Below, piece by piece: positions 5,401 to 14,400 of a stretch of DNA of 64,000 bases. The number at the start of each line of letters is the position of its first letter. Position 1 is the first letter of the stretch. Under the pieces are notes generated by a model that was not told the DNA's origin, did not search any database, and worked only from the letters and a program-made list of their open reading frames with translations. The translations under genes were made by a program, and so were the position numbers. The stretch comes from Owenia fusiformis (taxonomy: Eukaryota > Annelida > Polychaeta > Sabellida > Oweniidae): NCBI GenBank assembly GCA_903813345.2, contig CAIIXF020000012.1, positions 32,618,501-32,682,500 on the forward strand, given 5' to 3'.

Positions 5401-8400
5401 TCATTAAAAATACTCGTAAATGACGTTATTATGACAAAATTAATGTAATTGCTGGTTTGATTTTTCTCATTTTCAAGAAGGTGCAAATGAATTTTCAGAT
5501 TGGTACCAGGCTGTTTTTAAAATTTCAGAAGGGTGCTGCGCCCACTTGCTTTAATGCTGGAGAGATCACTGGTAAATGTAAGTATTTACTAAGGAAATAA
5601 AAGTACCTACCCATTAGAGTTGATAACTTGCTCTTAAGTTGAGATTCTAGTCTTGCAATCATCAGTTCTACAGCATTTCTGATCTCTCTCACCCTCTCAT
5701 CTTTGGCATTTTTGACACTTTCAACATTACGTTCCTGTAAGTGAAAATAGTATATTATTTCATTGTAAAAGAGAAAGAAAGGCGAACATTTGAGGAAATT
5801 TTTTTTATACCCTCTCATCTTTGGGATTTTAGGCACTTTCAACATTACGCTCCTGTAAGTCAAAAATCCAATGGTATGATTTGGGGAAATAAATGATATG
5901 GTGTTCATTTGGGGAAAAATATCATTTTTTGCCATTTCTGGTGTTCATTTTGGGAAAATCATTTGTTGCCATTTCTGATCTACCTGTTTTACTCCCTCAT
6001 CAAATTGCACATTTTTATCGAAAAATTCAAAATGGCTGCCAAGAACTTCACCCATCATGGCCAACACTAGAAGGTTGAACAGGAAAGCAGGTTTCATGGA
6101 ATTTTGATGACAGAACTTATTTGGTACCCGCCCTCTCAAAATAATACTATTTTTGCATGGACAGAGCTACCTACAACCAATGACATTATCAATCTAGTAA
6201 ATATATAATAGTTTCTCTGATGAAGTAAAAAATGGCAGGATTTATCAGAAACTTTTATTGATAAATATTCAGGGAAACTCCTTGATAATGCAGGGATCGA
6301 ATGAAACAAGACTTTGCGAGAATAAAAAATATTTTTGAATTATTCAACTCCATGAGATATCTTTCAGCATTAAACACTCCTCTGCCTTTTATGATTCTGA
6401 GAAAAATATAATGGCTCACCACTTCCTGTACGAGACTGATCAGTTCAACGTGTCTTCTCTTCAGCTGCGAGACGTCTTCATTAATCTTAGACACATGGTC
6501 CTCGTAAACTTCATCAAGGGGTTTAAACTCATGGCCCGCATGCTACAAGAAATGATAAAAATGGGAATCAATTCAGTGGTTTCAGTAACTTTTTTTACAA
6601 GAGGCAGATGAGAAATACAAGGGGCGGCATTCAAAATAACCAATTTTACACTCCCGAAAATGCAAATTCTTGTTATTCACTGGTGATCCGCTCAATTACG
6701 CTGGTTACCGAAAAGGTTCGTTTTGGTAATAAAATGTTGGAACGTCTAAGGTACGATTTTTCTTTTTTCCTTATTTCACGCGTTTTAGGCAGAATCCCGA
6801 CGATATGTTTTCTCACAAACTAGTATCAGCACCATATGTTTTAGAAAATGTACATGTGTGCGAAAAAATAGGTCAGAAGACAACAGAATCGTCGATTAAA
6901 TTCCTCACTTAAGTTACATAAACGGTTGGGGTTAAAAGTGCAGATCTTAACTGTTTTTCGAAAAACCGTTTATGTAACTTAAGTGAGGAATTAAATAGAC
7001 AATTCTATTGTCTTCTGAACTATTTATTCAAAAATATGTACATTTTCTTAAACATATGATACTGATACACGTTTGTGTAAAAGATGTCGTGGAAATTCTG
7101 CATACAAGGTGTGAAATAGGAAAAAAGAAAAATAGTACCTTAGATGTTCCGACATTTTGTTAGCAAAACGAACCGTTTCGGTAACCAGAGTAATCGAGTG
7201 GAGCACCAGTGTAATTATAGCGTCGGCGCACCGAAAGTGGATGAATGGACAGGGAATGTCGAAATTAAATTTGATCTAATCCACTTATTATTGTTCTTGT
7301 TAGATTAAAGGCAAAATATACTAAATGTCACAAAAAGTGCGACAATGTATCTCAAAGTTTTGAACATTGAATCCTATTGAGAGGTGATTTAAAAGATTTT
7401 ACGTATTGCAGGTTTTCCAAAGTCATTTCCATGTGTGATATTGTCAATTCAATTGACCACAAGACACTGGCTACACAAAATAACATCTTGAACTGTGGAA
7501 TGACTAGGGCAACTTATATAGAATGCCATTTTTACCTTTTATATTCTTATAAAAATAAATTATGATTTACTCTTCCACAGGTTTCATTTTACAAATTCAA
7601 ATGCACTTCCCGGGTTGAACACTCAATAAAGAATGCAACCTGTGTGAATAGAATGCAACCTGTGTGTATACAATGTACAGGGCGTTCAGTAAGTACTGAT
7701 CAAATGATGTGACTTTTTTAATCCCCCCCTAAAACTAAATACAATATTTGGCTTCTGACAACTGGCGAATTATAGAAAACAAACGGCGATTTTGGACTCT
7801 CGCCCCCCGCTATTGAAAGCCCAGCAATTGTTTCGTTAAAATGTTTTATTATTTTACTTTGGAATTTCTATCCGTAGATCAATGAAGAATAGAATCATCT
7901 CTTTCATTTTTAATTTCAGAATTGATTTTATATTTTCCTAATAATTGTTGGGATTACAATAGAAATGAGGTGATATTTTTCTGAAACTCATCTCTCTTGA
8001 AAATTAATAAATTTTATGAAATATAATCCAATATCAATGTGAATCATCATCCTTTCATCTCATATTTTTCTAATTCGAAGCATGTTAACAAAACAAAAAG
8101 TTGTGTGCAAAATTGTGAATGGAAATACAATGTGTTTATGATGAAGGAGAATACCTAATAGGCCAAACCATAAAGATTTGCTATATTTATTTCCCCATTT
8201 ACAAAACAAAGAAGTTTGAAAATCATTAAAGCAATATAATAGTGTGGCTAACAACATTATCATTGGCCCCTCCATCTTCAGATAATAGAGTCAATACTCA
8301 CTGCACCAGCCCATAGGGCACATTGATGGCACTCCTATAATTAGATAATGGACAAAATACTCACTGCACCAGCCCATAGGGCACATTGATGGCAGATACA

Positions 8401-11400: not shown

Positions 11401-14400
11401 CCCATATGGCACATTGATGGCAGATACACTTCCTATTATTATATAATAGAGTCAATACTCACTGCACAAGCCCATAGGGCACATTGATGGCAGATACACT
11501 TCCTATTATTAGATAATGGACAAAATACTCACTGCACCAGCCCATAGGGCACATTGATGGCAGATACACTTCCTATTATTAGATAATAGAGTCAATACTC
11601 ACTGCACCAGCCCATAGGGCACATTGATGGCAGATACACTTCCTATTATTAGATAATAGAGTCAATACTCACTGCACCAGCCCATAGGGCACATTGATGG
11701 CAGATACACTTCCTATTATTAGATAATAGAGTCAATACTCACTGCACCAGCCCATAGGGCACATTGATGGCAGATACATTTCCTGCATGTCCAGCAATAA
11801 ACACTCAACTTTTCTTTATGGTTTTCACATCTGAAAGACAAGAGAATTTACAGCTGAGTCAACATTTTTTTTACTTTTTTAAACATTAATTCTATTGGCT
11901 GTTCAATATGTGTTTGATTCAAAGTACAGTACTACCTCTGGAATATTTCCAAAACCATCTGGGAGGTATTCCAATTATGCAGACTCAAATTTAACATTAA
12001 GCTAATGAGTCACAGGACTTTAACAAGGCATTTATATTCAAAATGTCACCACCTGCCATTTTTTACAGACACCAAACATCAACCATTGAACTCCAAACAC
12101 CAAATGTCTCCAAAAAAGTTGGAGACTAACAATTTATATCATCACTTCTGGTGGTGATATAAAAAGTCAGGATTTATAAAACTGTTTTATTTGTGTACAT
12201 ATTTCCTAAAAAAAACAGGTTTTATGTTTTATACATGGCTGACTTACTTGTCCCTCTCTACTTCATCCACTCTGATAGGTGGTGCTGATAGTTGTAATGT
12301 GTCCAACTGTTGCGTCACCTCCTCTGCCCAGCGACAGTTTACCAACTCATGTAAGTGTAACGAAGCTCTGAAATAAGTGGAATAATTTTATACCAATAGC
12401 TGAATTTGATGTGTTGAGCTGGTATCAAGATATTTATCCCCAAGAAACCAGGATTTAACATAAAGCTAATAGGTACCCAATCAGTTATAATTTACATGTG
12501 AGTATGCCGACTCTGATTAAAATTTGAACAAATTCATCAAACATTCTTTCTAATAAATATTATTTTCTTTATCAATATGCATAAACCAATGTTCTCAAAG
12601 ATTTTTTCTAAAGTGAATACAAAATTGATTTTTATGATTTTCTCATTTTCAAGTGGATGCATATACTGATTTCCAAAATCTCAAGTGGTTACCCTCCTCA
12701 TTTGCATTAAGGTAGTTCCATACTCACAAAAGGCTGGTTCCTATCCATATGATAAATGAAACAAGTTTTAATCTTTTAAAATTATAATCATGAAACTTAC
12801 TTAAAAATTCTCATCGTACGAAACCACCTAAACACTGGTTCAATCAGCCTTTACAAAAAGCTTACCTGCAATGTGGACACTGTGATCTTTGTTCTGTCAG
12901 CCACCTTCTTATACACATGAAACAACATAGTTTGGAACAGTGTGGACAAAGGCGGGCATCCCGCAACTTTTCCATACAGATGAAACATCTGAACACTTCT
13001 GCCAAACTCTGAAATAGATGCAATTAAAGAAATAATTTGGTAACCCTCAGCATAGCATATCTGTAGAAACATTACAACATGTATATTATTTTCTACGGGT
13101 CATGAGCAGAAAATTTGTGAAGAATTCCTATATACTATGAACATCAATTTTCCCTCAGAACATTTGTAATTATATAAGAACAAATAAAAAATAGGGATCC
13201 TTCATTTGCACATATTAATAGATTTCTGTAATGGTAAATTGTGTGACGTAAAAAGTGCCCCGCCTACCCAAAAGTCAAGTTACCATAGTAACCCTTATTT
13301 TTGACCAATCAAATTAGAGATGCTGATATTTTAAGAATCAATCGAAAAGTATTTTTTATACATTGTGTGAAAATTCTATGAGAAAAGATCAAGAATCCTT
13401 GAAATGAGAGCATTTTTCCATGAACTTATTGAACAACCTAGTAAATTGTTGTTACTAAGGATTACATTGTAATGACGTAATAGTAAGAGAACGCCTCATA
13501 GGAATTTCTCATGAAGTTTCAACCTCCTGATACGAGTTCACTGGTACTCTGTTACAAATTAACACGAAAAGTTAAAAGTTAAAAGATGCCAGTGTATCCC
13601 CATCTTATGGTTACAAAAACAAAGGCACAATTATCATTTTAAAATTTCGAAATTTTTTGGTGTCTCATCTGGAGGAATATTTATTGAGCTACTGATCCAT
13701 AGATCCCGGCCAGATTCTTTTGTAGTAGAATCAGTAGCTCAATAAATATTCCTCAAGATGAGACACCTCAGAAAATTTCAAATTTTAAAATGAAGATTTT
13801 GGAGCCATTTCTGAAAAATATGAGACAAATCATACCTCATTCGAAGCGTCTTGTTATTCTTTAACTTTTTTATCACCAATGACCGTTATTCAAGCAATAC
13901 TGTGTTGATAAGAGGCCAAAACAGTGATATTTTATCGCTGGACTCTTGTCTGTCCAAATCTGAATGGTGCTCTCGTGGTTCCAGAAATGTGACGTCATCA
14001 GTTCAATGATTATTTTGACACACAAGAGTCCGGATCTCGTGAAAAATATTCGCCGTATTAAGGACAGGGTGCATGTTGGGAAATTTTCTGCATTCCTCAA
14101 TTGAGTCACATGTTATTTTTCAAACATGAATAACTCCTTCCCCACATTGTCTACATCTTCCAAGTTTGCACAAAGAGTGCACTTCTGTGCCTAGAAAAGC
14201 CTTGTGAGAAGGTTTGTTTTGTAAAATGTATAAAAAATGAGAAAATTCAGTGAAAAAAATTTCTGAAAATTTTCTGATTTTTTTCACTGAATTTTCTTGT
14301 TTTTTATACACTTTATCAAAACATTCTTCTCACAAGTCTTTTCTAGGCACATAAGTGCACTCTTTGTGCAAAACTGGAAGATATAGACAATGAAGGGAAG

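What the first reader, a model, noticed from the sequence alone, without database searches (positions are those of the whole stretch)
8286..11830. A 5' splice site amplified about 43-fold: TRIM37 exon-end minisatellite
Every 70-bp unit is the last 40 nt of the TRIM37 B-box exon plus its donor GTGAGT and 24 nt more of intron. The real exon is the terminal member of the array. The primary transcript would therefore carry dozens of near-identical donor sites downstream of the true one. They could act as U1 decoys, a splicing timer, or simply be tolerated. I know of no described case of a coding exon end and its donor expanded to this scale, but I cannot search.
Basis: seen in the sequence. Interest (0 to 1): 0.88.

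Follow-up and report, generated by a model that had tools for sequence, protein, structure and literature searches.

The report
Splice-donor minisatellite in TRIM37 intron
In an unidentified animal's TRIM37 gene, the last 41 bases of one coding exon together with its splice signal have been copied 42 more times into the following intron, most likely a tolerated tandem repeat of a kind already known in human genes, and a useful natural test of how cells choose between identical splice sites.

Summary
On the minus strand lies an animal TRIM37 gene. Its 88-nt B-box exon (11830-11743) ends GCA|GTGAGT. A 70-bp unit (41 nt of exon end plus 29 nt of intron) runs from that exon to 8280. It carries 43 GCAGTGAGT donors, 1 true and 42 downstream, none mutated. 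A 511-bp TTAA-flanked element splits the array. The exon call holds: splicing there gives a complete B-box.

The human ABCA7 intron-18 VNTR includes the exon-18 donor and reaches about 427 copies. The IFI6 minisatellite supplies several splice donors.

Decoy function is not shown. Donor invariance is not significant, unit RNA folding is ordinary, and any decoy use meets the same early stop. Two other exons of this gene have two-copy duplications across their acceptors, so boundary duplications look tolerated here.

Best reading: a tolerated donor-bearing minisatellite in which the exon-adjacent donor wins, with minor unproductive leakage. Copy number, polymorphism, splicing and other species could not be tested.

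The parts
11743..11830 (-). TRIM37 B-box exon, 88 nt, acceptor TCTTTCAG|A, ends GGTGCA
   Evidence: joined with the next exon it completes Pfam zf-B_box positions 3-42 of 42
11737..11742 (-). true 5' splice site GTGAGT (GCA|GTGAGT)
8280..11783 (-). 70-bp minisatellite: 43 units, each 41 nt of exon end plus 29 nt of intron (two units carry a deletion); the first unit's 41 nt are the real exon end
8280..11713 (-). 42 decoy units with intact GCAGTGAGT, downstream of the true donor
9035..9545 (-). 511-bp element inserted in one unit, TTAA on both sides (9549-9546 and 9034-9031); 11 of 16 end bases match as inverted repeat. A unit with the same TTAA and no insertion starts at 9823
   Evidence: one search printed the second TTAA one base off; one search corrects it
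8280..9017 (-). distal part with a five-unit block duplicated (343-bp period, 2.2 copies, 97%)
6543..11742 (-). 5,200-bp intron that holds the array
6420..6542 (-). next TRIM37 exon (acceptor TTGTAG|CATGCGGGCCAT)
5809..5865 (-). 57-nt, 91% copy of the acceptor region of the exon at 5734-5611 (decoy 3' splice site), 118 nt upstream of the original 5747-5691
2570..2626 (-). 57-59-nt, 81% copy of the acceptor region of the exon at 2522-2412 (original 2571-2513)

Best explanation
A short tandem duplication across the TRIM37 B-box exon/intron boundary (inferred) grew by unequal exchange or slippage into a 43-unit minisatellite (block duplication seen) that carries an unmutated copy of the donor in each unit. 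The donors are passengers. The spliceosome mostly uses the donor closest to the exon's acceptor, because the 88-nt exon is recognised as a unit; the next donors would make exons of 158, 228 and 298 nt (inferred from exon definition, recalled). Occasional use of a decoy meets the same stop codon, the 8th codon past the true donor (computed), and so gives an unproductive transcript. By analogy with ABCA7, expected traces are rare retention of one unit and perhaps skipping of the following exon that rises with array length.
For: 43 of 43 donors intact and the array contiguous with a real exon. The ten TRIM37 exons found join into one open 410-aa frame with B-box and MATH above cut-off and a TRIM37-type RING. 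Any decoy use truncates: the in-frame stop is at intron base 22, before the first decoy; computed for decoys 1, 2, 3 and 10, all ending after residue 124 of the 410 read. A duplicated five-unit block (343-bp period) and shared variants in runs show ordinary tandem-array turnover. Two further exons of the gene have two-copy duplications across their acceptors at 91% and 81% identity, so such duplications arise and persist here. The published human ABCA7 array behaves alike: 2 +/- 1% single-unit retention as I read the passage, and exon 19 skipping that rises with length.
Against: No RNA evidence of any kind was available. The true donor is only middling (6th of 10 by U1 pairing; 7th of 10 by a leave-one-out score) and has the same downstream context as its decoys, so by strength alone it should not win. 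With identical donors in two-exon constructs the intron-proximal one is often preferred (recalled), which would favour the far end of the array. Zero donor changes in 43 units leaves mild room for selection (P about 0.04-0.11 for the 9-mer). In ABCA7 longer arrays lower expression, so such arrays need not be neutral. The gene's first coding exon and its C-terminal part were not found, so intactness of the whole gene is not shown.
Confidence: 0.72

Rival explanations
1. Splicing rheostat: the array tunes TRIM37 output through unproductive splicing, since decoy use always meets the same premature stop, and copy number sets the leak.
For: Every decoy is intact and scores above the other GTs of the same intron beyond the array (0 of 90 reach its score); decoy use truncates; in ABCA7 longer arrays go with lower expression and more exon skipping.
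Against: No test of conservation between species was possible. In ABCA7 single-unit retention did not change with length. Invariance of the donor is not significant.
Confidence: 0.12
2. U1 sink or telescripting aid: 42 U1-binding sites hold U1 on the intron and suppress premature polyadenylation at AATAAA/ATTAAA signals in it.
For: 42 donor-like sites upstream of or among 8 AATAAA/ATTAAA hexamers in the 5.2-kb intron.
Against: Such hexamers are expected in AT-rich sequence and were not compared with chance; no polyadenylation data; U1 pairing energy is moderate (-7.6 kcal/mol).
Confidence: 0.05
3. Assembly artefact: the array is real but its copy number, or even most of it, is mis-assembled.
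For: Repeats of this kind are hard to assemble; no reads could be examined.
Against: Units carry structured variants, two are deletion-bearing, and a 511-bp insertion with its own TTAA duplication lies inside the array, which a simple expansion error would not make.
Confidence: 0.07
4. Cassette reading: units act as alternative 41-nt microexons, or the inserted element supplies acceptors that turn a unit into a poison exon.
For: The 41 nt are open in all three frames. Of 263 AGs in the intron the two best acceptor scores are at the element's edge (9543) and inside it (9060); the latter gives a 73-nt candidate exon that ends at a unit donor and contains stops. The two deletion-bearing units' AGs rank 4th and 5th (score 4.6).
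Against: The ordinary unit's AG scores poorly (35 found, median -0.9, best 3.3) against leave-one-out scores of 0.3 to 12.1 for the 10 real acceptors, though the weakest real ones overlap it. The matrix rests on 10 sites only.
Confidence: 0.04

Closest known systems
ABCA7 intron 18 VNTR (human; PMC5954066, passages seen)
   Same: Tandem array that starts at an exon end and includes that exon's splice donor; dozens to hundreds of units downstream of the true donor; coding gene.
   Different: 25-bp unit, described as lying in the intron with its first two bases being the donor; here the unit is 70 bp and includes 41 nt of coding exon. ABCA7 has population and RNA data; this locus has none.
IFI6 (6-16, G1P3) minisatellite (Turri et al. 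1995; text not held, title and use seen in passages of PMC4526556)
   Same: [quoted passage not shown] two downstream units are used as donors.
   Different: By recall a 12-bp unit that is mostly the donor motif itself. There downstream donors give different isoforms; here decoy use would truncate.
Internal tandem repeats at exon-intron boundaries of human duplicated genes (PMC2812944, passages seen)
   Same: Minisatellite expansion at exon-intron boundaries altering gene structure and splicing.
   Different: Average unit 30 bp repeated 4 times in that study; no donor array of this size is described in the passages seen.
Intron gain by tandem genomic duplication (review PMC3443670, passages seen)
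   Same: Tandem duplication that copies splice-site sequence.
   Different: There duplication of exonic AGGT makes a new intron; here an existing exon-intron boundary was copied and no new intron is evident.

Membership tests
TRIM37 (RING, B-box, coiled coil, MATH) | RING closest to TRIM37 among solved structures | tested here: met
   PDB 3lrq TRIM37, E 4.8e-41, residues 1-75; next best 1.2e-07. The generic Pfam RING models matched below their cut-offs (20.2 and 20.6 bits against 27 and 27.3)
TRIM37 (RING, B-box, coiled coil, MATH) | B-box and MATH domain | tested here: met
   zf-B_box 2.2e-11, MATH_2 1.4e-18, both above the curated cut-off. The B-box exon alone matched other TRIM proteins in PDB, best TRIM63 at 0.0087, and no TRIM37 entry
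TRIM37 (RING, B-box, coiled coil, MATH) | N-terminal start and C-terminal part after MATH | tested here: inconclusive
   The first exon found (13008) starts inside the protein and the last found is 1889-1770; no further convincing match to the recalled human protein in the window
Minisatellite | Head-to-tail units of about 10-100 bp | tested here: met
   70 bp, 43 units
Minisatellite | Length polymorphism between individuals (VNTR) | not testable with these tools
   One sequence only; no genome held
Donor-bearing minisatellite (ABCA7/IFI6 kind) | Array begins at an exon end and units carry the donor | tested here: met
Donor-bearing minisatellite (ABCA7/IFI6 kind) | Unit donors used in RNA | not testable with these tools
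   No transcript data
piggyBac-like (TTAA) element, for the insertion | TTAA target duplication | tested here: met
   TTAA at 9549-9546 and 9034-9031; unit at 9823 has the TTAA without insertion
piggyBac-like (TTAA) element, for the insertion | Terminal inverted repeats | tested here: inconclusive
   11 of 16 end bases match; the repeat finder listed no terminal pair
piggyBac-like (TTAA) element, for the insertion | Related transposase or family copies | not tested
   511 bp is too short to code for one; other copies were not sought

The most novel reading that the evidence does not exclude
A coding-exon-end/donor array has been kept as a copy-number-dependent splicing rheostat on TRIM37: identical donors compete with the true one, each failure meets the same truncation, and array length sets how much TRIM37 the animal makes.
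Probability: 0.1. Interest if true: 0.75.

Novelty: new member of a known kind. Interest (0 to 1): 0.42.

Why it matters
It is a natural competition experiment: 43 donors with nearly the same 41 nt upstream and nearly the same intron downstream, differing mainly in distance from the acceptor. Which one is used would measure exon definition directly, without donor strength as a variable. It also adds a case with a larger, exon-containing unit, in what looks like an invertebrate, to a small set of donor-bearing minisatellites, one of which is linked to Alzheimer's disease risk (ABCA7). If the array is merely tolerated, it shows how robust first-donor choice is in a conserved gene.

Tried and rejected
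Selection on the donor: 41 of 43 units were tallied (the two deletion-bearing units 8685 and 8342 left out) and give 21 variant sites, three of which (67, 69, 70) are junction artefacts of neighbouring units or of the element. The donor 9-mer is unhit with P about 0.04-0.11 for 23 to 16 independent changes, and the longest invariant run (12 nt, which holds it) reaches P 0.19 in a scan test. Not significant.

RNA structure as a switch: the unit fold has z 0.06, with 98 of 200 shuffles as good; modelled local accessibility of the donor 9-mer is at most 0.006 for all 43, the true one included, against a mean of 0.038 over the stretch, so structure does not single out the true donor.

Palindromic junction CTATTAT-CTA-ATAATAG as a trace of the founding event: 53 of 3000 shuffles do as well; suggestive only.

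Other collections: 0 matches in genome contigs (prokaryotes) and 0 in viral contigs for one exact 28-base unit pattern, as expected for an animal intron. Rfam at gathering scores: 0 matches in the window. NCBIfam: one match far below its cut-off. Species: not identified; that it is an invertebrate is my inference from the protein.

Literature (all ten searches used). The four-term VNTR search (27), the per-unit donor search (33), the competing-donor search (34) and TRIM37 with minisatellite (43) gave 0 papers. The earthworm metallothionein paper (passages) is not a donor array in what I saw. The hTERT paper (passages) and the yeast paper (passages) only cite Turri 1995.

Full report
What is there. 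The window's first 13 kb hold, on the minus strand, an animal TRIM37 gene. A human TRIM37 sequence recalled from memory located ten exons between 13008 and 1770; AG/GT boundaries chosen from the sequence join them into one open 410-aa frame. That protein has B-box and MATH domains above Pfam's cut-offs, while generic RING models match below theirs; its RING matches the solved TRIM37 RING 3lrq at 4.8e-41. The first coding exon and the part after MATH were not found. The B-box exon is 11830-11743 (88 nt), ends GCA|GTGAGT and joins CATGCGGGCCAT at 6542; across that joint the B-box model is matched from position 3 to 42 of 42. So the shared segment is exon in this gene.

The array. From the exon's last 41 nt to 8280 run 43 units of a 70-bp repeat: 41 nt of exon end and 29 nt of intron. 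All 43 keep GCAGTGAGT; the motif occurs nowhere else in the 64 kb on either strand. Thirty-nine of 42 spacings are 70, two are 63 and one is 585. The 585 is a 511-bp insertion between two TTAA (9549-9546 and 9034-9031); a unit with the same TTAA and no insertion starts at 9823. The real exon copy differs from the consensus unit only at position 5 (AAA for AAG, synonymous); the other 40 units without the deletion have G there, so there is no sign of recent conversion of the exon at that base. Variants run in blocks, and a five-unit block is duplicated with a 343-bp period: ordinary tandem-array turnover. Array units flank the insertion on both sides, so I infer that it came after at least part of the expansion.

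What the donors could do. By U1 pairing the donor is 6th of the gene's 10 (-7.6 kcal/mol; range -3.7 to -13.8); by a leave-one-out matrix it is 7th of 10. Outside the array, 14 of 701 GTs across the gene (real donors included) and 0 of 90 in the rest of the same intron score as high. So by this small matrix the decoys are the best competitors in the intron. Reading past the true donor gives VSIDSII and a stop at intron base 22, ahead of the first decoy; decoys 1, 2, 3 and 10 were computed and all end after residue 124 of the 410 read, and skipping the exon gives a stop after residue 114. Decoy use therefore truncates the protein rather than diversifying it. Folding does not separate the true donor from the decoys.

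Is the donor under selection? No hit in the donor 9-mer among 16 to 23 assumed independent changes has P about 0.11 to 0.04, and the longest invariant stretch (12 nt, containing it) P 0.19 (41 of 43 units tallied). I do not claim selection.

A wider pattern in the gene. Comparing each of the ten exons and 80 nt of flank with 14000-1000 found two more copied splice boundaries: 57 nt at 91% across the acceptor of the exon at 5734 (copy at 5865-5809), and 57-59 nt at 81% across the acceptor of the exon at 2522 (copy at 2626-2570). With the array, 3 of 10 exons have a copied boundary; the other 7 gave no match. In a separate scan of the whole window for local direct repeats (13 loci, two of them the halves of this array) only the 5734 and 11743 boundaries were flagged; the weaker 2522 case was not listed there. 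This was noticed after the fact and is a lead, not a statistic. It favours tolerance: boundary duplications arise here and persist, and this array is the extreme one.

Precedents. The human ABCA7 VNTR lies immediately beside exon 18 and includes its donor; alleles run from about 12 to about 427 units of 25 bp. Retention of one unit (a cryptic donor one unit down) is at 2 +/- 1% as I read a 'respectively' in the passage and did not change with length, while exon 19 skipping rises with length and expression falls (PMC5954066, passages). The IFI6 minisatellite supplies multiple donors, and two downstream units are used (PMC4526556, passages; the original, Turri 1995, was not held). Tandem repeats at human exon-intron boundaries that change splicing were catalogued in PMC2812944 (passages). 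The locus is therefore a new member of a known kind; its own features are the 70-bp unit, the 41 nt of coding exon in each full unit, and its being, as far as the sequence shows, outside vertebrates (inferred).

Conclusion. Shown: gene identity, exon boundary within this gene, array, intact donors, truncating outcome of decoy use, insertion. Inferred: the true donor wins by exon definition, leakage is small, and the array is near-neutral. Not testable here: RNA use, polymorphism, species distribution and assembly correctness (no genome held).

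Noticed in passing
window 5865-5809 and 5747-5691 (minus strand): Two-copy duplication (57 nt, 91%) across the acceptor of a TRIM37 exon: a decoy 3' splice site 118 nt upstream of the real one.
   Followed up: partly
window 2626-2570 and 2571-2513 (minus strand): Two-copy tandem duplication (81%) across the acceptor of another TRIM37 exon.
   Followed up: partly
window 9545-9035: 511-bp TTAA-flanked element inside the array; the two best acceptor-like sites of the intron lie at its edge (9543) and in it (9060), the second giving a 73-nt candidate poison exon that ends at a unit donor.
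   Followed up: partly
window 6678-7211: Fold-back repeat in the same intron: arms of 94 nt (89%) and 119 nt (86%), looks like a MITE.
   Followed up: no
window 4727-5033 and 19010-19115: Tandem repeats with related plus-strand units: GTAAGT-x-GAACAC-like in the first (antisense to TRIM37), AAGTGGAACAC-like in the second.
   Followed up: no
window 26372-27373 (minus strand): 333-aa open frame with RNase H (6e-13) and a zf-RVT match below cut-off: probably from a retrotransposon.
   Followed up: no
window 21923-23308 (minus strand): 461-aa open frame with no Pfam match up to E 1 and only weak PDB matches (best E 0.029).
   Followed up: partly
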